DNA of 64,000 nucleotides from Haemophilus parainfluenzae ATCC 33392. GTDB lineage: Bacteria; Pseudomonadota; Gammaproteobacteria; Enterobacterales; Pasteurellaceae. Within the stretch, counting starts at the first letter, position 1. Each line of letters starts with the position of its first letter. The notes under the pieces are model-generated. The model was not told where the DNA came from. It saw nothing but the letters and a program-made list of their open reading frames with translations, and ran no database searches. Shown here piece by piece: positions 4,775 to 62,119 of this stretch. A program made the position numbers and the translations under genes. The stretch is from positions 441,501 through 505,500 of the forward strand of contig NZ_CP133470.1 in NCBI RefSeq assembly GCF_031191205.1, read 5' to 3'.

Positions 4775-7024
4775 TTAGAAAGTATATTTTACTGTTACGT
4801 AATAAGCACGACCAGGTTCGTTATAAGTATGAGCATTGTAATTTGTACTGCTTGATGAACGATAAATGCGTTTATCAAATAAGTTACTTACACCGACACG
4901 AATACTGATTGTGTCTTTCCAATTGTAACCTGCGCTTAATCCCCAAACTGCATAGCTACCAATATCTTCTGAGCCAGCAAGCTGATTAACGTATTTATTG
5001 TTACCATTTTCCATACGATTTTCCGGATTTTTACGGGATTTTTGTTTACCGTATTGCGTATAAGTTAACATTGCATCCAAGCTATCTGTAATTTGATAAC
5101 TTAAGCTTGAATTCAAGGTATATTTTGGCACGATAGAAAGCGGGTTACCTGTATCTTTATTTTTGGTTTTATGCATATAAGTGAAGTTATTCACCCAGTT
5201 TAATTTATCTTGGATTAATGGTAATGTCAGATTACCTTCAAAACCTTCAATCACTGCGCGGTTTGCATTACCCCATTTATACAAATAGTTACCTAGGTTA
5301 GTTAAACCAATAAATTCACCATCAGACACGATTTTGTTACGATAGTCATTACGGAAGTAAGCTACAGAAGCTAGAAGTCCGTCTTTATCATATTCAATTC
5401 CGATTTCTTTATTCCAACTGGTTTCTGGTTTAATGTCGCTATTACCTTGGAAATAACAGGTTTTATTATTCGGTACATTCGTTGGACAGCCTTGACCTAA
5501 AGTAAACAACAAGTAATTCGGGTTAGTTTGATAAAGATTCGGTGCTTTATAAGCTCTTGCAATCCCACCTTTAATTTTCCAATCATCGTTGAGACTTTGT
5601 AAGAAGTTTAATCCACCACTTACATTAGAACCTGAATAGGTGTTGTAATCATAACGTAAAGATGGCGTTAGGATGGTAGATTGGGTTGCTGAAATATTAT
5701 CTTCAACAAATACTGCCCATTCAGTTTGACTGCTATGACCACCTCGTACATTTGAAATACCACTTGGTAAACGTTCTTTCAAATCATAAACTACTTTATT
5801 GCCAACACGTCTTCCGCCGAGTAACTGTGTCATAGAAGAAGCATCATCTAAACTGCTGTGTACGCCTTCAAAACCAACTGTCAGCATATGCTCTACACCC
5901 AAGGTAAATGGGATATAGAATTCAGAACTAAAGCGCGTATTTTTAAGAATAGAATCGCTAAAGGCTGATGTACTCGAATAACTGCCTTCTGGGCCACCTG
6001 CTAAATATTCTGGTAAACGGCTGTTTTTAGTTTTATCAAAAGTAATATAGGTTTTATTGTCGAAATGATCGAATTTACCTTCATAGGTTAAAGCATAGTT
6101 CTGACGATATAAACGAGCGGTTTCAGCTTTGCTTCCTGCCAAGGTTTTGGTTTCAGGATAGTTTTTATTATTATAAAGCCCTGCTGAGCTATTTTGTGTA
6201 TCACCGTTATAAATATTACCTTGACGGCTGAAACCAGAATCCAAGGTTAATTTATTTTTCTCATTGATATTCCACACTAAACGGCCATTAATATCTTTAT
6301 TACGTACGCCTTCACGACCAGCAATCGCAGGATCGCCATTAATACCGACTTCATCCGCTTGTGTTTTGTTCCAGTTACCATATAAACGGAATTGCAATAC
6401 ATCTTTAATTAACGCACCACTTAGATTAAAACCGACACGGTTCGTTGCACCTTCATCGCTGTCTTCTGGTTGATTGGTGTAATAGCTTAAGCTACCGTGC
6501 AAATCATTGGTAACAGGTTTAGTGATAATATTAACCACCCCACCCATTGCACCTGAGCCATAGCGTGCCGCTGAAGGACCACGCAATACTTCAATTTTTT
6601 CAATCGCTTCAACTGGCACCCAGTTACTGTCGCCACGAGAGTTACGTTCACCACGCACACCATAACGTTCTGCATTACGAGAGGTGACTGGTTTACCATC
6701 CACTAAAATCAATGTATTTTCTGGTCCCATACCACGAATATCAATTTGACGTTTATTTCCGCGTTGTCCTGTAGATGAGTTACCCGTCAAATTCACACCT
6801 GGCATGGTACGTAATACTTCAGAAACATCATTTGTCGCTGGGCGTTTTTCTAAATCTTTTGCTGTCACAAGAGAAGAACCAAGTGATTGTTTTACCTGAT
6901 TTTCTGCTGTAACTTTAATTTCATCTAGTTTCTCTTCGCCATAAGAATAGCTTGAAAAAAGCGCGATGGTTAATGTGCTTAATGCGAAGAATGATGTTGT
7001 TTTTAAATGATTGCCTTTATACAT
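4775..7024 (-). CDS. TonB-dependent enterobactin-type siderophore receptor, FepA/BfeA-like
   Basis: A 749-residue outer-membrane receptor. The signal peptide ends around SYSYG (residue 29), a TonB box follows (LDEIKVTA), then the plug (DIRGMGPENTLILVDGKPV, VLRGPSAARYGSGAMGGVV). The barrel includes a two-cysteine extracellular loop (GCPTNVPNNKTCYFQG) and GNSDIKPETSWNKEIG, typical of FepA/PfeA/IroN-type receptors, and the last residue is Phe. The start was set at 7024 because AGGAG (complement of 7031-7037) lies six bases upstream. An in-frame ATG at 7042 would place the ribosome-binding site inside the coding sequence. Ferric enterobactin or a related catecholate is the likely ligand, inferred from family. 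It is the first of two adjacent siderophore receptors, each with its own terminator. Confidence 0.9.
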   Translation of the reverse strand: MYKGNHLKTTSFFALSTLTIALFSSYSYGEEKLDEIKVTAENQVKQSLGSSLVTAKDLEKRPATNDVSEVLRTMPGVNLTGNSSTGQRGNKRQIDIRGMGPENTLILVDGKPVTSRNAERYGVRGERNSRGDSNWVPVEAIEKIEVLRGPSAARYGSGAMGGVVNIITKPVTNDLHGSLSYYTNQPEDSDEGATNRVGFNLSGALIKDVLQFRLYGNWNKTQADEVGINGDPAIAGREGVRNKDINGRLVWNINEKNKLTLDSGFSRQGNIYNGDTQNSSAGLYNNKNYPETKTLAGSKAETARLYRQNYALTYEGKFDHFDNKTYITFDKTKNSRLPEYLAGGPEGSYSSTSAFSDSILKNTRFSSEFYIPFTLGVEHMLTVGFEGVHSSLDDASSMTQLLGGRRVGNKVVYDLKERLPSGISNVRGGHSSQTEWAVFVEDNISATQSTILTPSLRYDYNTYSGSNVSGGLNFLQSLNDDWKIKGGIARAYKAPNLYQTNPNYLLFTLGQGCPTNVPNNKTCYFQGNSDIKPETSWNKEIGIEYDKDGLLASVAYFRNDYRNKIVSDGEFIGLTNLGNYLYKWGNANRAVIEGFEGNLTLPLIQDKLNWVNNFTYMHKTKNKDTGNPLSIVPKYTLNSSLSYQITDSLDAMLTYTQYGKQKSRKNPENRMENGNNKYVNQLAGSEDIGSYAVWGLSAGYNWKDTISIRVGVSNLFDKRIYRSSSSTNYNAHTYNEPGRAYYVTVKYTF

Positions 7025-7096
7025 TGAATGCTCTCCTGGCATATGTGAAATAAATAATACCCGAGAATTCTAGTACAATATAATTTGAGTGTAAAC

Positions 7097-7115
7097 AACA
7101 ATTCTTATCATTATT
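7097..7115 (-). promoter_or_regulatory. Candidate Fur box upstream of the FepA/BfeA-like receptor
   Basis: The minus strand reads AATAATGATAAGAATTGTT, which matches 14 of 19 positions of the Fur consensus, including an unbroken ATAATGATAA core. It lies about 75 bases upstream of the start codon. Confidence 0.65.
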
Positions 7116-7160
7116 ATTCAAATTAAATGAACAAAATACCTAAATTTTGACCGCACTTTC

Positions 7161-7188
7161 TTGCAATCCCAATAAATTCGAGTATTAT
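7161..7188 (+). promoter_or_regulatory. Candidate promoter of the preQ1-riboswitch operon
   Basis: TTGCAA (7161-7166) and TATTAT (7183-7188) with 16-base spacing. The transcript would start near 7195, carry a small CGCC/GGCG hairpin (7197-7209), and then the riboswitch. Confidence 0.5.
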
Positions 7189-7223
7189 TCACGGTTCGCC
7201 AATTTGGCGGATTTATTTCTCAT

Positions 7224-7262
7224 GTCGGGTTCCCTACCCCCGATTAACCAACTAAAAAGGTC
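7224..7262 (+). promoter_or_regulatory. PreQ1-I riboswitch controlling translation
   Basis: Stem P1 is TCGGG (7225-7229) with CCCGA (7239-7243), enclosing a pyrimidine-rich loop TTCCCTACC. It is followed by an A-rich tail, TTAACCAACTAAAAAGG, ending in the ribosome-binding site 7 bases before the ATG at 7268. The arrangement is nearly the same as the short translational preQ1-I aptamer of Thermoanaerobacter tengcongensis as I remember it. Loop C residues would pair with the tail GG and hide the ribosome-binding site when preQ1 is bound. The downstream gene is a queuosine-precursor transporter, a known target of this riboswitch class. Confidence 0.88.
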
Positions 7263-7267
7263 TTAAA

Positions 7268-7975
7268 ATGAAAATTAATACTCCGATCTTCAATGATCAA
7301 CAAAAACGTTTTGCTTTAATTTTATTAAGCTTATTTCACATCTTCATCATCACAGCCAGTAACTATTTCGTTCAAATCCCATTTGAAATCAATTTAAAAT
7401 TGACCGCACTTGGTTTTGCTGATGATTTTTCCTTCCACAGCACATGGGGCACGCTCACCTTCCCATTCATTTTCTTAGCCACTGATTTAACAGTACGTGT
7501 ATTTGGGGCAAAAGAAGCCCGTTGGATCATTTTTATTGTGATGCTCCCCGCACTTATCGTGAGTTACATTGTTTCTGTTGTTTTTTCTGATGGACAATAT
7601 CAAGGTTTAAGTGCATTAAGTGAATTCAATATGTTTGTTTTTCGTATTGCGTTCGCCAGTTTCTGTGCTTATGTTTTCGGACAATTATTAGATGTGTTAG
7701 TATTCAACCGCTTACGTCAATTAAAAACTTGGTGGATAGCACCAAGCAGTTCCATGACATTTGGTTCTCTTGCCGATACCTTTATGTTCTTTGGCGTAGC
7801 ATTTTATAAAAGTAGCGATCCATTTATGGCCGAACATTGGTTTAGCCTTGGATTCGTCGATTACTTATTTAAATTATTTGTCGGTATTGTCTTGTTTGTA
7901 CCTGCTTATGGTGTGGTACTGAGCATGATCTTACGTAAACTTCAATCACTCGCAGACTCTCGTCAGTTTGCTTAA
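7268..7975 (+). CDS. yhhQ: Queuosine precursor transporter, YhhQ/QPTR (VUT) family
   Basis: A 235-residue inner-membrane protein with about six hydrophobic segments that imports preQ0/preQ1 for the tRNA modification queuosine. Family features seen are the N-terminal helix FALILLSLFHIFIITASNYF, then FPFIFLATDLTVRVFGAKEAR, the segment FRIAFASFCAYVFGQLLDV, and a late segment PSSSMTFGSLADTFMFFGVAF. The upstream preQ1-I riboswitch strongly supports the assignment. An organism that cannot make preQ1 would depend on this gene, but queC/D/E/F lie outside the window and could not be checked. It is followed after 14 bases by an MFS transporter gene, probably on the same mRNA. Confidence 0.9.
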   Translation: MKINTPIFNDQQKRFALILLSLFHIFIITASNYFVQIPFEINLKLTALGFADDFSFHSTWGTLTFPFIFLATDLTVRVFGAKEARWIIFIVMLPALIVSYIVSVVFSDGQYQGLSALSEFNMFVFRIAFASFCAYVFGQLLDVLVFNRLRQLKTWWIAPSSSMTFGSLADTFMFFGVAFYKSSDPFMAEHWFSLGFVDYLFKLFVGIVLFVPAYGVVLSMILRKLQSLADSRQFA

Positions 7976-7989
7976 CTTAAGGAAATAAA

Positions 7990-9306
7990 ATGACCGAAAC
8001 ACTTTCTCTTAGAGCCAAAATAGAACAAAGCCCAATGGGGGCTTATCAATGGATGATTGTGGTGATGGCTGCCATTATGAATTTACTTGACGGCTTCGAT
8101 GTATTAGCCCTTGCCTTCACGGCAACAGCCATTCGTGGCGAATTTGGTCTCACTGGGATTGAGTTAGGTTATTTATTAAGTGCCGGCTTATTTGGTATGA
8201 CCGCAGGCTCACTTTTCCTTGCACCACTTGCAGATAAAATTGGTCGTCGCCCATTGTTATTAATGGCAGTATCACTCTCTGCTATCGGTATGTTAGGCTC
8301 TGCGTTTATTTCACAATATCAGTGGCTCGGTTTCTGGCGCGTTATCACCGGTCTTGGTGTTGGCGGTATTTTAGTGGGTACAAACGTGATCACCAGCGAA
8401 TACTCTTCTCGCAAATGGCGTAGCTTTGCAATCAGTGTCTATGCTGCTGGTTTTGGTATCGGTGCGGTATTAGGTGGGATGTTCGCTGTGATGCTGCAAG
8501 GTGAATATGGCTGGCGTTCCGTGTTTTTAGCGGGTGCTATCTTGACCGGTTTACTTTTAGTGGTTTTATTTATTTGGTTACCGGAATCCATTGATTTCCT
8601 CACCTCCAAACAACCTAAAAATGCAGAAGTGCGGTTAAATTTAATTGCAAAAAAAATTAGTTTAGCCGGTGATTGGAAACTTCCAGAAAAAGCGGAAAAA
8701 GTTAAAACTAAATTGCCTATTAGCCAATTATTCAGCGAGAAATACTTACATTCTACCCTGTTAATTTGGACGGCTTTCTTTGCGATCATGTTCAGCTTCT
8801 ATTTTATTAGCTCATGGACACCAGCCTTATTAAAAGAAGCGGGCATGACGACAGAGCAAAGTGTGAGTGTAGGGATGATGATTTCATTAGGTGGCACCTG
8901 CGGCGCCTTAATCTATGGCTTACTGGCTAGCCGTTGGACAGCTCGTGGCGTGTTAATTTTATTCACCGTCTTATCTTCCGCAGCGATCATCACCTTTATC
9001 TTATCCTCATCTGTTTTATGGATTGCAATGGTATTCGGTATTTTAGTTGGAGCACTTATGAATGGCTGTATCAGCGGTCTTTATACCTTAAACCCACTTG
9101 CTTATGATGCCGATATTCGTAGCACCGGTGTAGGCTGGTCGATTGGTATCGGTCGTATTGGTGCAATTCTTGCTCCAACGATTGCCGGCCAATTATTAGA
9201 TATGGGCTGGGACAAACAGAGTTTATATGTGGGCGTGGGCTTTGTGATGTTAATCTCAACAGTCGCACTCTTTTTGTTAAAAAGCCGCTCAGAAATTAAA
9301 GCATAA
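7990..9306 (+). CDS. MFS transporter, aromatic acid:H+ symporter (AAHS)-like
   Basis: A 438-residue protein with about 12 transmembrane segments. The family signature DGFDV in segment 1 and the loop 2-3 motif LADKIGRRPLLL are visible, as is GFWRVITGLGVGGILVG in segment 4. The DGFDV motif and overall pattern place it near the AAHS group (PcaK, MhpT), whose members carry aromatic or small organic acids. The true substrate is unknown. It follows yhhQ by 14 bases with AAGGAAATAAAATG as ribosome-binding site and start, so it probably lies under the same preQ1 riboswitch transcript. A role in moving a queuosine-related base is an inference from context only. Confidence 0.8.
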   Translation: MTETLSLRAKIEQSPMGAYQWMIVVMAAIMNLLDGFDVLALAFTATAIRGEFGLTGIELGYLLSAGLFGMTAGSLFLAPLADKIGRRPLLLMAVSLSAIGMLGSAFISQYQWLGFWRVITGLGVGGILVGTNVITSEYSSRKWRSFAISVYAAGFGIGAVLGGMFAVMLQGEYGWRSVFLAGAILTGLLLVVLFIWLPESIDFLTSKQPKNAEVRLNLIAKKISLAGDWKLPEKAEKVKTKLPISQLFSEKYLHSTLLIWTAFFAIMFSFYFISSWTPALLKEAGMTTEQSVSVGMMISLGGTCGALIYGLLASRWTARGVLILFTVLSSAAIITFILSSSVLWIAMVFGILVGALMNGCISGLYTLNPLAYDADIRSTGVGWSIGIGRIGAILAPTIAGQLLDMGWDKQSLYVGVGFVMLISTVALFLLKSRSEIKA

Positions 9307-9322
9307 TTTTAAAAAATATAAC

Positions 9323-9349
9323 AAAAGGCGTAATAAACACGCCTTTTTT
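9323..9349 (+). terminator. Terminator of the yhhQ-MFS operon
   Basis: AAAGGCGT (9324-9331) pairs with ACGCCTTT (9339-9346), loop AATAAAC, then further T residues. Confidence 0.88.
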
Positions 9350-9527
9350 ATTGAATTGATAAAGTACTCATCCCTAGCCTTCAAATCAGAAAGATTCTCA
9401 GGTTATTTTATGTAACATTTTCTTCTAAAAATCCTTTGTTATCCATCTTGAATTTCAACGCATTATGGTGTTAAATCTGCACACATTATAAGGTTATAAA
9501 AAATATAAAAATAAGCTGTAGGAATTT

Positions 9528-10355
9528 ATGTGCCAATTACTCGGAATGAACTGCAATACGCCGACGGATATTGTCTTTTCTTTTGAAGGTTTCCGTCGTC
9601 GTGCTGGTCTTACCGACTGCCATTCAGATGGCTTCGGTATCGCTTTTTTTGAAGGTCGTGGTGTGCGTATTTTTCGCGATAACCACGCTGCATCTCAATC
9701 CCCGATTGCAGATTGTGTAAAACAATACAACATTAAATCGCTCAATGTGATTGCCCACATTCGCAAGGCAACACAAGGCGGTGTCACCATTGAAAATACC
9801 CATCCCTTTATTCGTGAAATTTGGGGACAAAATTGGGTGTTTGCTCACAACGGTAATTTAAAAGAATTACCGGATATGTCTGAGAGTTTCTGCCAACCCA
9901 TTGGTTCAACGGATTCAGAAGCGGCATTTTGTTATATGGCGGAATATTTGAAAAATCGTTTCCGTCGTAAACCGTCTGAAATAGAAATTTTTGAAGCCAT
10001 TCAAGACATTACCAAAGAGCTCTCACAAAAAGGGACCTTTAACTTCATTCTTTCAAACGGAGAATGGATGATTGCCCACTGCTCAACCAATTTGCATTAC
10101 TTAACACGTAAAGCTCCTTTTGGTAAAGCTCACCGCATTGATGATGATGGTGTCATTGATTTTAATGATTATGCAAAAGATGGCGACAAAGTCACCATCA
10201 TTACGACGTTCCCTCTCACCAAAGATGAGCCTTGGGTCAAAATGGAACATGGTGGTTTCGTCTTCTTCAAAGAAGGGGATAAAATTGCTGAGGTAGTAGG
10301 CGTGGCAAAAGAAATGGAAGATGACGGTACATTAGGCAATCGTGCAGCAGCCTGA
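9528..10355 (+). CDS. Class II glutamine amidotransferase, YafJ family
   Basis: A 275-residue protein with an N-terminal nucleophile amidotransferase fold. Cys2 (MCQLLGMNC) is the expected nucleophile after removal of Met. Typical positions follow: SDGFGIAFFEGRGVR, IAHIRKATQGGV, NTHPF and FAHNGNLKEL, the last being the oxyanion and substrate loop. The length matches stand-alone YafJ-type proteins, which have no synthase domain. The acceptor substrate is not established, so the biochemical role remains general. It appears monocistronic, with its own upstream gap of 221 bases and a terminator shared with gor. Confidence 0.88.
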   Translation: MCQLLGMNCNTPTDIVFSFEGFRRRAGLTDCHSDGFGIAFFEGRGVRIFRDNHAASQSPIADCVKQYNIKSLNVIAHIRKATQGGVTIENTHPFIREIWGQNWVFAHNGNLKELPDMSESFCQPIGSTDSEAAFCYMAEYLKNRFRRKPSEIEIFEAIQDITKELSQKGTFNFILSNGEWMIAHCSTNLHYLTRKAPFGKAHRIDDDGVIDFNDYAKDGDKVTIITTFPLTKDEPWVKMEHGGFVFFKEGDKIAEVVGVAKEMEDDGTLGNRAAA

Positions 10356-56295: not shown

Positions 56296-57720
56296 TTACT
56301 GTTTTTTAGCGCCTAATTGATTGCCTAAGATAAACGCAACCAAACCAAATACAAGCGCGGGGACAATGGCATTAAAACCAAATAGTTTGATACCAAATTG
56401 AGTCAGCAGCACATAACTGCTTAATCCCACTACCATTGAACTTATTGCACCGGCAGCATTTGCTTTATCCCAATAAATGCCTAATACAATCACCCAAAGG
56501 AATGCTGCTTCTAATCCCCCAAAAGCAAATAAATTCAACCAAATAATCATATCAGGTGGATTGAGTGCTGCGAGAATTAGTAATGCCGATAAAATCAGCG
56601 TGATGACTGATGAAATACGGCTAATTCGTTTTTCATTCTTCGCCGCTTCTGGTTTGCTTGCAAGATATAAGTCTTTCACAAAAATTGAAGAGGATTGAAT
56701 CAGTTGTGCATCGACTGTGGACATAATCGCAGACATCGGTGCTGCTAAGAAAATCCCTGCAACAATTGGCGGAAGCACTTCCAACATTAAGGTTGGAATG
56801 ACTTTATCTGATACCGTTAAATCAGGCACAACCGCACGTCCTAAAGCACCCGCCAAATGCATACCAAACATAATGACTGAAAGGACAATCGTACCAATAA
56901 GCATCCCTCGATGTAAGGCTTTACTATCTTTGAAAGCCATGCAACGCACGGCTGTATGTGGCAAACCAACTACACCAAAACAAACTAGAATCCAAAAAGA
57001 TGCCATAAATTGAAAATCAAGCATCTCATTCGGACCGTAAGGGCTCACTAAACTCGGATCAATTTCAGTTAATTTATTGACCGCACTTTCTACACCACCG
57101 AGATGGTAAACCACCCCGACTAATAGCACGATTGTCCCCAAAATCATTACCGTACCTTGAATCGTATCCGTTAATACGACCGCTCGGAAGCCACCAATAA
57201 ATGTATAAATACCAACTGTTAAGGCAAAAATAAGTAACGCGTGAGTATAAGGAATCCCTATCGTGGTTTCGAGCAATCTCGCCCCACCAATAAATTGCAC
57301 AACCATGGCAGCAAAGAAGGCAAGCAACAATGCTAGACTGGAAATCCATACGAGATATTTATTTTTATAACGATAGAGAAATAAATCATTAATGGTGAGC
57401 GCATTAGTTTCACGAGAAAGTAATGCAAATTTTTTACCTAATGCACCTAAGGCTAACCAAACAGCCGGTACTTGGATCATGGCGAGCAATACCCAGCCTA
57501 GCCCATATTTATAAGCAGCCCCTGGTCCACCAACAAAAGAACTGGCACTGGCATAAGTGGAAGCCGTTGTCATCGCAAGCACAAAGCCCGTCATGGAGCG
57601 ATTTCCCACATAATACTCCGTAAGGAAATCACCTTTACTGCGTTTAACATAAGCAAATAATGCCGCGCCAAAGATGAAAACTAAGTAGATAACTAAGGGG
57701 AGAATAATACCTAAATTCAT
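56296..57720 (-). CDS. panF: Sodium/pantothenate symporter
   Basis: A 474-residue SSSF-family symporter with about 13 helices. Typical segments are FLTEYYVGNRSMTGFVLAMTTASTYASASSFVGGPGAAYKYG near the N-terminus, YTFIGGFRAVVLTDTIQGTVMILG, and FLAAPMSAIMSTVDAQLIQSSSIFVKDLY, the sodium-site region. It takes up pantothenate for coenzyme A. Its start shares one base with the yhdT stop, so translation is coupled. Confidence 0.95.
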   Translation of the reverse strand: MNLGIILPLVIYLVFIFGAALFAYVKRSKGDFLTEYYVGNRSMTGFVLAMTTASTYASASSFVGGPGAAYKYGLGWVLLAMIQVPAVWLALGALGKKFALLSRETNALTINDLFLYRYKNKYLVWISSLALLLAFFAAMVVQFIGGARLLETTIGIPYTHALLIFALTVGIYTFIGGFRAVVLTDTIQGTVMILGTIVLLVGVVYHLGGVESAVNKLTEIDPSLVSPYGPNEMLDFQFMASFWILVCFGVVGLPHTAVRCMAFKDSKALHRGMLIGTIVLSVIMFGMHLAGALGRAVVPDLTVSDKVIPTLMLEVLPPIVAGIFLAAPMSAIMSTVDAQLIQSSSIFVKDLYLASKPEAAKNEKRISRISSVITLILSALLILAALNPPDMIIWLNLFAFGGLEAAFLWVIVLGIYWDKANAAGAISSMVVGLSSYVLLTQFGIKLFGFNAIVPALVFGLVAFILGNQLGAKKQ

Positions 57721-57974
57721 TATTTATTCTCCTTTGACTCAACGTCTAGTGGAATATCTAAAAAGACAATTTTGACAATCCAATACCCAATGACTACAAA
57801 CAAAATGGGTAAATAAATGCAGGATAATTCAAACCACAACGGAAACCCTATCGGCCCAGACGAGTTTTTTGGTAGATAAGCACAAACACACCACCCAATC
57901 ACGTAAAGAATGGCTAACCCTAATGCCCAGCGCGCCTCCTTGGTAGCTTGTTTATATCGTTGTGATAAATTCAT
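57720..57974 (-). CDS. yhdT: YhdT-family small membrane protein
   Basis: An 84-residue protein with two transmembrane segments (ALGLAILYVIGWCVCAYLP and LSCIYLPILFVVIGYWIVKIVFLDIPL). Genes of this family always or nearly always lie just before panF, as here, and may help that symporter; the exact role is unknown. AAGGAG precedes the ATG by six bases. It starts only 16 bases after the Slam-type gene, although the normal partner upstream would be accC. Confidence 0.9.
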   Translation of the reverse strand: MNLSQRYKQATKEARWALGLAILYVIGWCVCAYLPKNSSGPIGFPLWFELSCIYLPILFVVIGYWIVKIVFLDIPLDVESKENK

Positions 57975-57990
57975 TATTAACTCCTTTTGG

Positions 57991-59439
57991 TTAGAAAGTT
58001 GTGCCCATTTCTAGAAAAATACGATTTTTATCATAACTATAAAATGGATGATTACTTGAAACTCGTTGATAAGACCATGTAATTTTAGGCGTGATTCCCC
58101 AAAAGTAAAGATCACGATGCCATAATGTTACTGCTGATTGATATTCATTATTTTTTTGACGAATATTAAATAAATCAGCACCTTTGTAAGTTCTATGCGC
58201 ATAGGCAAGGGAAACTCGAGTTGAAATACCCCAGCCCCACTCTTGCCCCCAACCTAAACGCAGATTTTTACGTTGATAAGCATTGTCTTCGTCTCGTGTA
58301 TTTTCACGATTATAATCAGCGCCTACAAACCAAAATTGACCACTCTTAGGAAAATAAGATAACGTATTCGACCAAAGATAGTTATTCCCATTCAAATGTT
58401 TACGAGTGTTATAACGCTGTTCACCATACTCAAGTGCGGTTGAAATTTGCCACTTTTCACTCAACCAATAAGTTAAATCTAAACGAGCACCTGAATTTTT
58501 CGAATACTGTTTCATTGACTCGTTACCTGATGCGCCACCAGCATACCATCGTCTTTCTGTAAATGGCATCAATGAAATCTCAAAATGTGCTGTTTGATAA
58601 CCTACTCCAGCACCGACTCTACCATTAAATTCATTATATTTTTTATTATCCCAGTAATATTTTCCTCTTCCCTCAATAGAAAATTGAGCGAAATAATTAT
58701 GGGATAATGACCATTTTTTCTCTGCTTCTGCAAAATAAGAAAAACCTGTTGCACTTTCACGTTCCCAGGCATTCCAATTTCCAATGCGAGTGCCAGCTTT
58801 TGGCGCATTGTTAATATTACTTTCATTCAAGAAACTCAAACCACCTCGAAACTTCCACTGCTCTCGGCTGTTAAGTGCTGAAAGATATTGATCGATCATG
58901 ACGATAGACTCGGGTGAAACTTGTTCAGCTCTCAGTTTTTGGAATTGATCTTTAGCAGCCTCATTATCATTGTTTAAAAAGAGAGCTTGTGCTAACTGAT
59001 AACGTAACGGTAGAATGTTCGGATCTTGAGAAAATAGCGTACGATAACGAGTTACTGCCTCCGAAAAACGCCTTTCTTCACGAGCATTAATCGCATTCGC
59101 CCATTCAAGTAAAAATGGATCTTGTTTAGACAAATTTTGATACAACGGTAATAATAATTGAACGGCTTCGCCGTTATTTTGCGACACCGCAGTGATCAAT
59201 CCATGCACAATCAAATCTGGATGTTTCGACAATTCTTCTTTCGTAATAGAAAGCGTATGTTTATCTTTACGTTTATCTGATACTTGTGGATTTGCAGAGG
59301 ATAAACTAGGTTTAGCAAATTCAAGTTGATCATCAAATCGTTCATCACGAGGTTTAGGAGACTTCTCTGCTGCAAAAGAGAAAGAACTCAGCAATAAAGA
59401 CGAGCTTAAGAATAAAACAAGTTTAGATTGTGGAATCAT
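57991..59439 (-). CDS. Slam-type outer-membrane protein (surface lipoprotein assembly modulator, type XI secretion)
   Basis: A 482-residue protein that fits the Slam/DUF560 layout. A signal peptide ends in FSFAAEK (about residue 24). A periplasmic helical TPR-like domain follows (about 75-190), with FLLEWANAINAREERRFSEAVTRYRTLFSQDP and LPLRYQLAQALFLNNDNEAAKDQF as repeats. A C-terminal beta-barrel of alternating aromatic strands (about 195-482) ends in MGTTF. Slams move TbpB-like lipoproteins to the cell surface or release haem-binding proteins such as hemophilin. The gene lies beside a matching lipoprotein gene. It contains one uptake-signal core (near 58433). The family call is from architecture and recalled similarity. 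Confidence 0.82.
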   Translation of the reverse strand: MIPQSKLVLFLSSSLLLSSFSFAAEKSPKPRDERFDDQLEFAKPSLSSANPQVSDKRKDKHTLSITKEELSKHPDLIVHGLITAVSQNNGEAVQLLLPLYQNLSKQDPFLLEWANAINAREERRFSEAVTRYRTLFSQDPNILPLRYQLAQALFLNNDNEAAKDQFQKLRAEQVSPESIVMIDQYLSALNSREQWKFRGGLSFLNESNINNAPKAGTRIGNWNAWERESATGFSYFAEAEKKWSLSHNYFAQFSIEGRGKYYWDNKKYNEFNGRVGAGVGYQTAHFEISLMPFTERRWYAGGASGNESMKQYSKNSGARLDLTYWLSEKWQISTALEYGEQRYNTRKHLNGNNYLWSNTLSYFPKSGQFWFVGADYNRENTRDEDNAYQRKNLRLGWGQEWGWGISTRVSLAYAHRTYKGADLFNIRQKNNEYQSAVTLWHRDLYFWGITPKITWSYQRVSSNHPFYSYDKNRIFLEMGTTF

Positions 59440-59460
59440 TTTTTATTCCCATAAAGAAAA

Positions 59461-59485
59461 TAAAGCAAGCACGAAGCTTGCTTTA
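59461..59485 (-). terminator. Hairpin between the lipoprotein gene and the Slam gene
   Basis: TAAAGCAAGC (59461-59470) pairs with GCTTGCTTTA (59476-59485) around ACGAA. On the minus strand it is followed by TTTTCTTTAT, a partial U-tract. It could be a leaky terminator giving more lipoprotein mRNA than Slam mRNA. Confidence 0.65.
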
Positions 59486-59507
59486 AATAATAATGAAATA
59501 GAATTTC

Positions 59508-60572
59508 TTATTGTGCTTTTGCACCGTAGGCTCCAACCCAAGAATTATCTTTAGCTTTTACCATTCCACCTAGTTCTTTAGCTCCATCCCCATAAAACTT
59601 GCCCTCTGATACAGCTTCTGAAACAAAAGAGGAGGATTTTGCAGTACCGTAAAATTTATTGCCTGAAATATCGGCATTAATGTCAACTTTGACGTTATTA
59701 AATTTACTTTCCCCAGATTCAACATCATATTTAGGACTATCAACGTTTAAACTTCCTGATAATTTTTTGTCACCAAAATTAACCTTAAATTCAGAGGTGC
59801 CTTTTCTATAACCACCAAATACATGATTCCCTTTATCCGCCATTATACTTTCACCTTTGTAAGTAACTTCTCCTGATTCTGGCATACTGTTTGAAGGATT
59901 TCCATTATAAAAAAGAATATCATCTTGCCCAAATGAATGACTTGCAATTGCACCAAAGCGAACATCTGTGTATTTTCCACAACAAATATGTGGTGCTAAA
60001 TTCAGCTTCTCGATAAACGCCCCTTCTTTTGTCCAATCTTGACTTGGTTCAAGTTTAAAATCAATAGGAATATTTTTGCCATCAACATCGATACTAGTAA
60101 AATTATTAGTAGCAATGAGCTCCTGTTCATTTTTAATTGTATTAACATTTCCTACAATATCTCCCTCATTTTCTGTTTTTATAGAAAATGCTAAACCAGT
60201 ATTAGTTGGCAAACGTTCAGGCATTCCAGGTGTTGGCTGTTCAATTGGTTTTGATGGCTCAGCTGGTTTGGATTCCTCAGTTGGTTTGAACTGCTCACTG
60301 GTTTTGGACTGCTCAGCGGGTTTGGATTGCTCAGCGGGTTTGGATTGCTCAGCAGGTTTGGATTGTTCAGCAGGTTTGGATTGCTCAGCAGGTTTGGATT
60401 GCTCAGCAGGTTTGGATTGCTCAGCAGGTTTGGATTGTTCAGCTGGTTTGGATTGTTCAGCAGGTTTGGATTGACTCGCTAATTGATTATTACCACCGCC
60501 ACCACTTCCACAGGAAGCTAGCATTACCGTTGTAAGAATAGTTAAGCTGAATTTCGAAAGATTAAATTTCAT
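59508..60572 (-). CDS. Repeat-bearing surface lipoprotein with TbpB-like C-terminal barrel (Slam substrate)
   Basis: A 354-residue lipoprotein. The signal peptide ends in the lipobox LASC (Cys21), followed by GSGGGG. A long hydrophilic tether of nine perfect QSKPAE hexapeptides plus decayed units runs from about residue 33 to 110. The C-terminal domain (about 125-354) ends FYGDGAKELGGMVKAKDNSWVGAYGAKAQ. This is the last-strand pattern of TbpB/HpuA-like eight-stranded barrels (F-G-x-x-A-x-E-L-G-G...GAFGA). These are typical Slam-dependent proteins that bind host iron or haem proteins, or complement factors. The ligand here is unknown. No uptake signal is present. Confidence 0.8.
   Translation of the reverse strand: MKFNLSKFSLTILTTVMLASCGSGGGGNNQLASQSKPAEQSKPAEQSKPAEQSKPAEQSKPAEQSKPAEQSKPAEQSKPAEQSKPAEQSKTSEQFKPTEESKPAEPSKPIEQPTPGMPERLPTNTGLAFSIKTENEGDIVGNVNTIKNEQELIATNNFTSIDVDGKNIPIDFKLEPSQDWTKEGAFIEKLNLAPHICCGKYTDVRFGAIASHSFGQDDILFYNGNPSNSMPESGEVTYKGESIMADKGNHVFGGYRKGTSEFKVNFGDKKLSGSLNVDSPKYDVESGESKFNNVKVDINADISGNKFYGTAKSSSFVSEAVSEGKFYGDGAKELGGMVKAKDNSWVGAYGAKAQ
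60313..60474 (-). repeat. Tandem 18-bp repeat, nine units, encoding QSKPAE
   Basis: Nine 18-base units (plus strand TCAGCAGGTTTGGATTGC) start every 18 bases from 60313 to 60457, with only 1-2 substitutions among units (for example CGGG/CAGG/CTGG). Degenerate units continue to about 60241. The unit is a multiple of three, so copy changes alter tether length without shifting frame. Confidence 0.95.
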
Positions 60573-60603
60573 TGTTTTTCCTTAAGCAAAAAAATAGTCA
60601 CAA

Positions 60604-60631
60604 ATTATATAGGGATTTTATATCATTTCAA
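60604..60631 (-). promoter_or_regulatory. Promoter of the lipoprotein-Slam genes
   Basis: The minus strand has TTGAAA (complement of 60626-60631), 16 bases, and a perfect TATAAT (complement of 60604-60609), about 32 bases before the start codon. I could not find a convincing Fur box here. Confidence 0.75.
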
Positions 60632-60674: not shown

Positions 60675-60709
60675 AAAAAACGGCTAATCCATCTTGAATT
60701 AGCCGTTTT
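60675..60709 (-). terminator. Terminator of accBC
   Basis: AAAACGGCTAAT (60677-60688) pairs with ATTAGCCGTTTT (60697-60708), right after the accC stop. It separates accBC from the lipoprotein-Slam genes. Confidence 0.88.
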
Positions 60710-60712
60710 ATT

Positions 60713-62059
60713 TTAATCATACATCCCTAATTTCTTCTCTAAGTAGTGGATATTGGCGCCACCTTTTTGGAAGTTTTCATCTTCAAGAATAATTTCATGA
60801 AGAGGGATATTGGTTTTGATACCGTCAATGATCGTTTCTGATAATGCATTTTGCATACGACGGATTGCTACATCACGAGTATCACCGTATGTAATTAATT
60901 TTGCGATCATAGAATCATAATGCGGAGGAACGGTATAACCGCCATACACATGAGAATCCCAACGAACGCCTAAACCACCTGGTGAGTGCAAGTGTGCCAC
61001 TTTACCTGGAGATGGTAAGAATGTTTTTGGATCTTCTGCATTGATACGACATTCAATTGCATGACCTTTCACTTTAATATCTTCTTGTTTATAAGAAAGT
61101 GGTAAACCAGCCGCAATACGTAATTGTTCTTTCACCAAATCCACACCAGTAATCATTTCTGTTACTGGATGTTCTACTTGAATACGAGTATTCATTTCGA
61201 TGAAATAGAACTCACCATTTTCATATAAGAATTCAAATGTACCTGCACCGCGATAGCCAATTTCAACACAAGCCTTCGCACAACGAGAACCTATATCACG
61301 ACGAACTTCTTCGGTAATACCCGGTGCTGGTGCTTCTTCCACCACTTTTTGGTGACGACGTTGCATAGAACAATCACGCTCTGCAAGATAGATTGCATTA
61401 CCGTGTGTATCAGCTAAAACTTGAATTTCAATATGGCGTGGATTTTCTAAATATTTTTCCATGTAAACCATATCATTGTTAAACGCTGCTTTTGCTTCTG
61501 CTTTTGTCATCGCAATGGATTCTTCAAGTGCATCTTCGCTACGTACCACGCGCATACCACGACCACCGCCACCACCAGACGCCTTGATAATAATTGGATA
61601 GCCAATACGTTTTGCAATTTCTTTATTTTTCGCGATATCGCTACCTACTGGGCCATCTGAACCAGGTACGCAAGGCACGCCTGCTTTTTTCATTGCTTTA
61701 ATCGCAGAAACTTTATCCCCCATCAAACGAATAACGTCCGCTGTTGGGCCAATAAAGATAAAACCAGAACGCTCAACTTGCTCTGCAAAATCCGCGTTTT
61801 CAGAAAGGAAACCATAACCAGGGTGAATCGCATCCGCACCGGTTACTTCTGCTGCAGCAATAATCGCAGGAATATTTAAATAACTTTTTACAGATGGCGC
61901 TGGTCCGATACAAACTGTTTCATCTGCAAGTAATACGTGTTTTAAATCACGGTCAGCGGTAGAGTGAACCGCCACGGTTTTAATGCCTAATTCTTTACAG
62001 GCACGCAAAATACGCAGTGCAATTTCACCACGGTTAGCAATCACAACTTTTTCTAACAT
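60713..62059 (-). CDS. accC: Acetyl-CoA carboxylase, biotin carboxylase subunit
   Basis: A 448-residue ATP-grasp enzyme that carboxylates the biotin on AccB. It begins [25 protein letters not shown], the biotin-carboxylase N-domain. ATP-grasp features include [37 protein letters not shown], and [27 protein letters not shown]. The ATG at 62059 gives the standard 448 residues. The in-frame GTG at 62071 overlaps the weak ribosome-binding site. It follows accB by 60 bases. Confidence 0.98.
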
Positions 62060-62119
62060 AACAATTTCCACTTGGGTGAAAAAATGGCGAGAAAGCTCGC
62101 CATTTCAGATTGATAGGGA

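What the first reader, a model, noticed from the sequence alone, without database searches (positions are those of the whole stretch)
57991..60631. Slam-lipoprotein pair (type XI secretion) placed inside a conserved accBC-yhdT-panF array
The sequence shows a lipoprotein with a TbpB-like last-strand pattern directly upstream of a TPR-plus-barrel protein of Slam layout, with one good promoter. Slam proteins are known to surface-display or release such cargo (TbpB, HpuA, hemophilin). In relatives accC is followed by yhdT-panF. Here the pair sits between them, with a terminator on the accC side and only 16 bases on the yhdT side. The cargo is not one I can name, so its ligand (haem, an iron protein, a complement factor, or a bacteriocin-like role against other Haemophilus) is open.
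Basis: partly seen in the sequence, partly recalled or inferred. Interest (0 to 1): 0.82.

Follow-up and report, generated by a model that had tools for sequence, protein, structure and literature searches.

The report
Protein H–Slam locus with swappable cargo
The two genes look like a Haemophilus parainfluenzae-group version of Protein H, a surface lipoprotein that in H. influenzae type b captures the host's complement-blocking factor H, together with the outer-membrane machine that displays it; the slot they occupy holds quite different surface proteins in close relatives.

Summary
57991-59439(-) is a Slam (SlipAM 1e-98). 59508-60572(-) is a lipoprotein with a TbpB-type barrel, above the cut-off of the "Slam-dependent surface lipoprotein" model; AlphaFold2 gives a handle plus an 8-stranded barrel.

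The cargo can be named. The four published primers for lph (Protein H, the factor-H-binding lipoprotein of H. influenzae type b) map once each, in order, to it and its upstream region: 76 of 82 bases. I read it as a Protein H orthologue with its Slam. Factor H binding is inferred; the full lph gene was not available.

The slot is not peculiar to this genome. A Slam sits at yhdT-panF in 28 of 140 Pasteurellaceae, in four genera. In 21 Haemophilus-type genomes the accC-yhdT gap is empty in 9 and filled in 12. Different cargo types (bodies at most 50% identical) stand beside Slams 90-98% identical within each group, two genomes excepted. Promoter/signal and body recombine separately.

A new member of a known kind, in an interesting multi-allelic setting.

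The parts
57991..59439 (-). Slam outer-membrane translocon: signal peptide (by eye), TPR domain (res. 63-166), SlipAM barrel (res. 195-482)
   Evidence: Pfam SlipAM 1e-98 and TPR_Slam 2.8e-37; the only SlipAM match in the genome
59508..60572 (-). Surface lipoprotein cargo, 354 aa, read as orthologue of H. influenzae Protein H (lph)
   Evidence: TbpB_B_D 3.6e-25; NF041636 99.6 bits over cut-off 80; three of the four lph primers map inside the gene and one in its upstream region
60510..60572 (-). Signal peptide and lipobox LASC, Cys at residue 21 (acylation inferred)
   Evidence: sequence; motif as given in PMC10075479
60247..60473 (-). Stalk: in-frame 18-bp tandem repeat, 12.6 copies (PAEQSK); 18.8 copies in G006
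59901..60197 (-). Handle domain of the cargo (putative ligand-binding part), with the CCGKYTDVRFG strand
   Evidence: AlphaFold2 strands 11-109 of the modelled body; some blocks have pLDDT as low as 39
59514..59870 (-). C-terminal 8-stranded barrel of the cargo (Slam-targeting part by analogy)
   Evidence: AlphaFold2 strands 120-238, 8 of 12 ten-residue blocks over 90 pLDDT; Pfam TbpB_B_D res. 230-352
60604..60631 (-). Putative sigma-70 promoter of the cargo gene
   Evidence: TTGAAA-16-TATAAT, 11 of 12; a predicted sigma-70 promoter 64 bp upstream of the lph start is reported in PMC8084184
60677..60709 (-). accC-side terminator hairpin; the published lph forward primer matches at 60690-60711
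   Evidence: -18.4 kcal/mol, z -6.3; primer match with 1 mismatch
59461..59485 (-). Terminator-like hairpin between cargo and Slam, which may lower Slam relative to cargo (inference)
   Evidence: -13.8 kcal/mol, z -6.0; the same hairpin by eye in all 8 cargo-to-Slam gaps printed
57720..57974 (-). yhdT (DUF997), downstream flank
   Evidence: Pfam DUF997 1.9e-26
56296..57720 (-). panF (sodium:solute symporter), downstream flank
   Evidence: Pfam SSF 3.7e-143
60713..62071 (-). accC, upstream flank
   Evidence: biotin carboxylase domains
58432..58440 (+). AAGTGCGGT, the Haemophilus DNA uptake sequence (name recalled), inside the Slam gene
   Evidence: in the Slam gene of 5 of 6 genomes with a near-identical Slam, absent in G010; 48 copies in the 64-kb window, so about one per gene of this length is expected

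Best explanation
The pair is the H. parainfluenzae-group form of the Protein H (lph)-Slam unit. The cargo is made with a lipoprotein signal peptide, acylated at Cys21 and carried to the outer membrane; the downstream Slam recognises its C-terminal 8-stranded barrel and moves it to the outer face. There a repeat stalk of variable length holds a handle-plus-barrel body off the surface, where it most likely captures host complement factor H (and perhaps vitronectin) and so damps the alternative pathway. Shown here: domain make-up, predicted fold, match to lph primer sequences, gene order, the two hairpins. Inferred: acylation, surface display, factor H binding, serum protection. Also shown: the slot is multi-allelic; other genomes carry other cargo types next to a near-identical Slam, or none, and promoter/signal and body do not travel together. 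Inferred: one Slam serves several cargo types, and homologous exchange (perhaps by natural transformation) swaps them.
For: Slam. Cargo family. Fold: (pLDDT 76, pTM 0.78); Foldseek top hits are TbpB/LbpB lobes, best E 9.7e-12. Protein H identity: the lph primers of Hib 10810 each match once in the 64-kb window within 3 mismatches, with 1, 3, 2 and 0; shuffles gave on average 0, 0, 0 and 0.02 such matches. The reverse primer covers 60483-60502, so it ends with coding base 90 counted from 60572, and the paper says the first 90 coding bases were cloned. The forward primer is exact in G006. Tree of bodies: window, G006 and G132 form one clade, 100/100. PH in a Slam cluster of H. influenzae: PMC5449769. 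PH function (factor H domains 7 and 18-20, vitronectin) from reviews PMC7947212 and PMC5167704. Multi-allelic slot.
Against: I have no list of factor-H-contact residues of Protein H to check. The handle, the likely binding part, is the least certain part of the model (blocks down to pLDDT 39). The 5' leader folds no better than shuffles (z +1.1), so the thermosensor reported for lph is not supported here. G132, whose body is 71% identical to the window's, matches the primers clearly only at one of four. The genome's host and niche are not given.
Confidence: 0.78

Rival explanations
1. A Slam-dependent lipoprotein homologous to Protein H whose ligand has changed, for example complement factor I as for PmSLP-1, vitronectin alone, or another host protein.
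For: Surface lipoproteins of this fold bind different host ligands; P. multocida PmSLP alleles 1 and 3 are only 37.9% identical (PMC10075479) and PmSLP-1 binds factor I (PMC12080921). Bodies of different types at this slot in the two Haemophilus groups are 26-50% identical to the window's.
Against: The primer matches put this body close to Hib lph: 20/20 and 18/20 at the two body primers.
Confidence: 0.15
2. A nutrient receptor (haem, haemoglobin or transferrin).
For: Best fold hits are TbpB and LbpB lobes, then HpuA and hemophilin/HphA; 120 of 185 lipoprotein-bearing Slam clusters in PMC5449769 also had TonB-dependent receptor genes.
Against: No TonB-dependent receptor among the four flanking proteins scanned; one lobe, not two; HphA_C is under its cut-off (27.5 against 31) and HpuA too (14.5 against 29.7); the signal peptide has a lipobox, unlike the soluble hemophilin type described in PMC8406197.
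Confidence: 0.05
3. A bacteriocin-like or competition factor against other Haemophilus.
Against: No toxin-type domain in the Pfam and NCBIfam scans; match to lph.
Confidence: 0.01

Closest known systems
Protein H (PH, lph) of H. influenzae types b and f
   Same: Primer sequences, register of the first 90 coding bases, upstream region next to accC, lipoprotein beside a Slam
   Different: Found here in another genus-level group; factor H binding untested; the full lph gene was not compared
Slam / type XI secretion system (DUF560), with lipidated TbpB_BD cargo (TXISS-1A of PMC8406197)
   Same: TPR_Slam plus SlipAM domains, adjacent lipoprotein-type cargo with an 8-stranded barrel
   Different: Near-identical Slams stand next to cargos of quite different types at one slot
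PmSLP of Pasteurella multocida (PmSLP-1 binds factor I; four allele clusters)
   Same: Slam-linked single-lobe lipoprotein with very divergent alleles and a long anchoring peptide (passages)
   Different: No PmSLP chain seen in the list or the 50 rows shown; ligand factor I; alleles described within one species, here across two genus-level groups
fHbp of Neisseria meningitidis
   Same: FHBP_C profile passes its cut-off (29.4 against 28.1)
   Different: NCBIfam factorH_bind far under its cut-off (10.2 against 200)

Membership tests
Slam (type XI secretion translocon) | SlipAM/DUF560 barrel, full length | tested here: met
   res. 195-482, profile 1-288/288, 1e-98
Slam (type XI secretion translocon) | N-terminal TPR_Slam domain | tested here: met
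   res. 63-166, 2.8e-37
Slam (type XI secretion translocon) | Translocation of the cargo to the cell surface | not testable with these tools
   needs an E. coli display assay as in PMC5449769
Slam-dependent surface lipoprotein | Lipobox signal peptide | tested here: met
   LASC, Cys21, fits [LVI][ASTVI][GAS]C (sequence; motif)
Slam-dependent surface lipoprotein | C-terminal TbpB-like 8-stranded barrel | tested here: met
   TbpB_B_D 3.6e-25; NF041636 over cut-off; eight strands in the model
Protein H (lph) | Nucleotide identity to lph | tested here: met
   76 of 82 primer bases, right order and register; only primer stretches could be tested, not the full gene
Protein H (lph) | Gene in a Slam cluster | tested here: met
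   H. influenzae precedent in PMC5449769
Protein H (lph) | Binds factor H (domains 7, 18-20) and vitronectin | not testable with these tools
   reported for H. influenzae in reviews
Protein H (lph) | RNA thermosensor leader | tested here: inconclusive
   weak hairpin over the RBS, -2 kcal/mol, z +1.1
TbpB | Two lobes and an adjacent tbpA | tested here: not met
   one TbpB_B_D stretch; no TonB receptor among the four flanking proteins scanned
Hemophilin/HphA | HphA_C profile over cut-off; soluble signal peptide | tested here: not met
   27.5 bits against 31; lipobox present
Neisserial fHbp | NCBIfam factorH_bind equivalog | tested here: not met
   10.2 bits against 200

The most novel reading that the evidence does not exclude
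Protein H is one allelic lineage of an old, multi-allelic surface-lipoprotein slot (accC-[cargo]-Slam-yhdT-panF) shared by the H. parainfluenzae and H. influenzae groups. A conserved, permissive Slam serves interchangeable cargos that may bind different host factors; cargo bodies, stalks and promoter/signal modules are shuffled separately and kept diverse by host immunity or ligand choice. The lph of type b strains would then be an import from (or exchange with) the H. parainfluenzae pool, since its primer bases match the two H. parainfluenzae-group genes (77 and 76 of 82) better than the interrupted H. influenzae HI-5290 copy (68 of 82) or G132 (60, hardly above the 47-59 that the other loci reach by best placement anywhere).
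Probability: 0.45. Interest if true: 0.7.

Novelty: new member of a known kind. Interest (0 to 1): 0.48.

Why it matters
It puts a complement-evasion lipoprotein known from encapsulated H. influenzae into the H. parainfluenzae group, and suggests that the patchy presence of Protein H reflects a slot whose cargo is swapped, lost and regained. Slams about 90% identical or more, next to cargos no more than 50% identical, give a natural experiment on what a Slam recognises. It also warns anyone who would use such cargos as vaccine antigens that the locus varies as PmSLP does.

Tried and rejected
Haem/iron uptake, bacteriocin and TbpB readings were considered and set aside (see rivals and membership test). 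A thermosensor leader like that reported for lph: not supported by folding. 'Insertion peculiar to this genome': rejected; a Slam is at the slot in 7 of 11 genomes of the genus, a cargo alone in one more, and a Slam in three other genera. Deletion from an A-B-Slam tandem (as in G010) could explain the A-only and B-only loci but not the window's mosaic, which joins a B-like upstream/signal/stalk to a body that is not B-like. PmSLP could not be compared by sequence; no PmSLP chain was seen or in the 50 rows shown. The uptake sequence in Slam is at the density expected (48 in 64 kb), so it is weak support for exchange by transformation. A first tree had entered the window and G006 rows whole because a cutting rule failed; it was repeated with bodies only, and the numbers given here are. 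Searches for Protein H or a Slam cargo of H. parainfluenzae in print showed none in the titles and abstract starts listed (15 of 66, 2 of 2, and 10 of 2,135 papers); these are listings, not full texts.

Papers: passages seen of PMC5449769, PMC10075479, PMC12080921, PMC8406197, PMC8084184 (35, 61, and its section 8 whole), PMC7947212, PMC5167704, PMC12416846 (70, not used). Fleury 2014, the original report of Protein H, was not held and is known here only through reviews.
Full report
OBSERVATION. The downstream one is a full-length Slam: SlipAM over residues 195-482 (1-288 of 288, E 1e-98) and TPR_Slam over 63-166 (2.8e-37). The upstream one has a lipobox (LASC, Cys21), an 18-bp in-frame repeat of 12.6 copies encoding PAEQSK, and a C-terminal TbpB_B_D domain (3.6e-25); it passes NCBIfam's 'Slam-dependent surface lipoprotein' model, 99.6 bits against a cut-off of 80. 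The genome (2.14 Mb) has one SlipAM match and one TbpB_B_D match, both in this pair.

EXPRESSION SIGNALS. The promoter-like site at 60631-60604 is 11 of 12, though such sites are no commoner than in shuffles. Two hairpins followed by T-runs are much stronger than shuffles: the accC terminator (z -6.3) and one between cargo and Slam (z -6.0). The second was not in the finding; the same AAAGCAAGC...GCTTGCTTT hairpin stands, by eye, in all 8 cargo-to-Slam gaps printed. It would favour much cargo and little Slam; this is inference.

STRUCTURE. AlphaFold2 on the 239-residue body with 13 relatives gave mean pLDDT 76 and pTM 0.78: seven strands (handle), then eight (barrel), with 8 of the 12 ten-residue barrel blocks over 90. 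Foldseek against the PDB put TbpB and LbpB lobes first (best E 9.7e-12), then HpuA, HphA/hemophilin and NHBA among the 50 rows shown. A B-type body (L063) gave pLDDT 70, pTM 0.71 and the same kinds of relatives. Query TM-scores of 0.47-0.66 do not fix the ligand.

NAMING THE CARGO. A paper on RNA thermosensors lists primers for lph, the gene of Protein H, from H. influenzae type b strain 10810 (PMC8084184, section 8 read whole). The forward primer for the upstream intergenic region matches the window at 60690-60711 with one mismatch, directly after accC, and is exact in H. parainfluenzae C2006002596 (L062 = G006). The reverse primer matches 60483-60502 with 3 mismatches; counted from the start at 60572 it ends with coding base 90, and the paper says the first 90 coding bases were cloned. 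The qPCR primers match 60197-60216 with 2 mismatches and 59941-59960 exactly. Each is the only match in 64 kb within 3 mismatches. Of 13 loci tried, the best matches over 82 bases are G006 77, window 76, HI-5290 68, G132 60, and 47-59 in the other nine. The last figures are what best placement anywhere gives, so G132's total is hardly above background; at the two body primers alone the mismatches of 40 are 2, 2, 7 and 8 against 10-18. Hooda et al. had already placed PH in a Slam cluster of H. influenzae (PMC5449769 passages). Reviews give factor H domains 7 and 18-20 and vitronectin as its ligands, and one says non-typeable strains do not express it (PMC7947212, PMC5167704 passages). I therefore call the window's cargo a Protein H orthologue; that it binds factor H is inference.

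THE SLOT. In the genus (11 genomes) the accC-yhdT gap is empty (96-100 bp) in 3 (G001, G003, G008) and filled in 8: Protein H type plus Slam in G000 and G006; A type plus Slam in G002; B type plus Slam in G005 and G009; A then B plus Slam in G010; B without Slam in G004 (its closest Slam, 65%, is 152 kb from panF); two cargos of the CC type plus a 66% Slam in G007. 'A', 'B', 'C' and 'CC' are my own labels. In the H. influenzae group (10 genomes, g7) it is filled in 4: Protein H type in G132, an A-like cargo in G127, a C type in G133 (H. seminalis), and an interrupted Protein H-like copy in G129 (HI-5290). In the other 6 the accC-panF distance is 462-467 bases, which leaves room for yhdT only; among them are H. 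aegyptius (G131) and H. quentini (G016), matched by coordinates and contig lengths. Over 140 Pasteurellaceae genomes a Slam lies beside panF in 28: 7 of 11, 4 of 10, 7 of 9 and 10 of 15 in four genera (tabulated in 85). For the other genera I compared the printed places by eye and saw none; the weaker matches were not printed. In 3 of the 7 Aggregatibacter accC is over 290 kb away, and in the 10 Rodentibacter it is on another contig or at least 69 kb away, so the steadier linkage is to yhdT-panF.

CARGO DIVERSITY. Among six genomes of the genus Slam DNA is 90-96.5% identical and does not sort by cargo (G002 with A and G009 with B are 96.2%); accC is 92-98% and yhdT-panF 91-96% over ten. G004 and G007 are exceptions, with Slams of 65-66%. 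Cargo bodies against the window's are 97% (G006), 50% (G002), 47% (G010 A) and 26-31% (four B types); A against B bodies are 32-36% in three pairs tried. In the H. influenzae group the three intact Slams are 95-98% alike while their bodies are 27-45% alike. The Protein H type of G132 is 71% identical to the window's, about the Slam divergence between the groups (73%), and window, G006 and G132 form a clade with support 100/100; so this lineage cuts across the two groups. For the A type the tree does not resolve G127 with G002 and G010 (open fork; 59% identity G002-G127). Old shared polymorphism and repeated exchange cannot be told apart with one genome per species.

MODULES. The window's upstream 100 bp and first 75 coding bases are closer to B-type genes (62-72% and 81-84%) than to A-type genes (51-53% and 64-67%), while its body is closer to A (60-63% at DNA level) than to B (49%). 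G132 has a Protein H-type body (76% at DNA level) but a different upstream and signal sequence (55% and 67%), and G133 has upstream and signal sequence 94% and 99% identical to G127 with a body of 50%. G002 and G000 share a C-terminal end (last 75 bases 87%) that G010 A lacks (69% to G000). Of 23 cargo genes, 14 have a tandem array, 12 of them with 5 or more copies; the repeat units differ and all periods are multiples of three, so slippage changes length, not frame.

ONE SLAM, SEVERAL CARGOS. G010 has one Slam match but four TbpB_B_D cargos, two of them away from the slot; G008 has neither Slam nor cargo; G001 has a distant Slam and no such cargo. This suggests, without proving, that one Slam serves several cargo types.

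VERDICT. Observation confirmed; reading partly supported and sharpened. New member of a known kind, in a multi-allelic setting that I did not see described in the titles and abstract starts listed.

Noticed in passing
L085 (H. influenzae HI-5290, G129), about 5244-10232: The Protein H-like cargo and the Slam are both interrupted, and panF and the EamA-type gene beside them also carry breaks; could be real decay or an assembly of low quality.
   Followed up: partly
L142 and L143 (G010 C3:45316 and C3:268747): Two TbpB_B_D lipoprotein genes far from the only Slam match of that genome: orphan cargos.
   Followed up: partly
L113 (G004 accC-yhdT gap): A B-type cargo stands at the slot without a Slam; the genome has three Slam matches elsewhere.
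   Followed up: partly
G024 C3:519611-521023: A very distant Slam (23% identity) lies about 1.2 kb from panF, convergent with it, on the other side from the slot.
   Followed up: no
window 58432-58440: Uptake sequence AAGTGCGGT inside the Slam gene of 5 of 6 near relatives; G007 has none in its 13-kb stretch.
   Followed up: partly
L114 (G004 C1:733000-744000): Two cargos in tandem, A-like then B-like, with a 65% Slam at a different place in the genome.
   Followed up: partly
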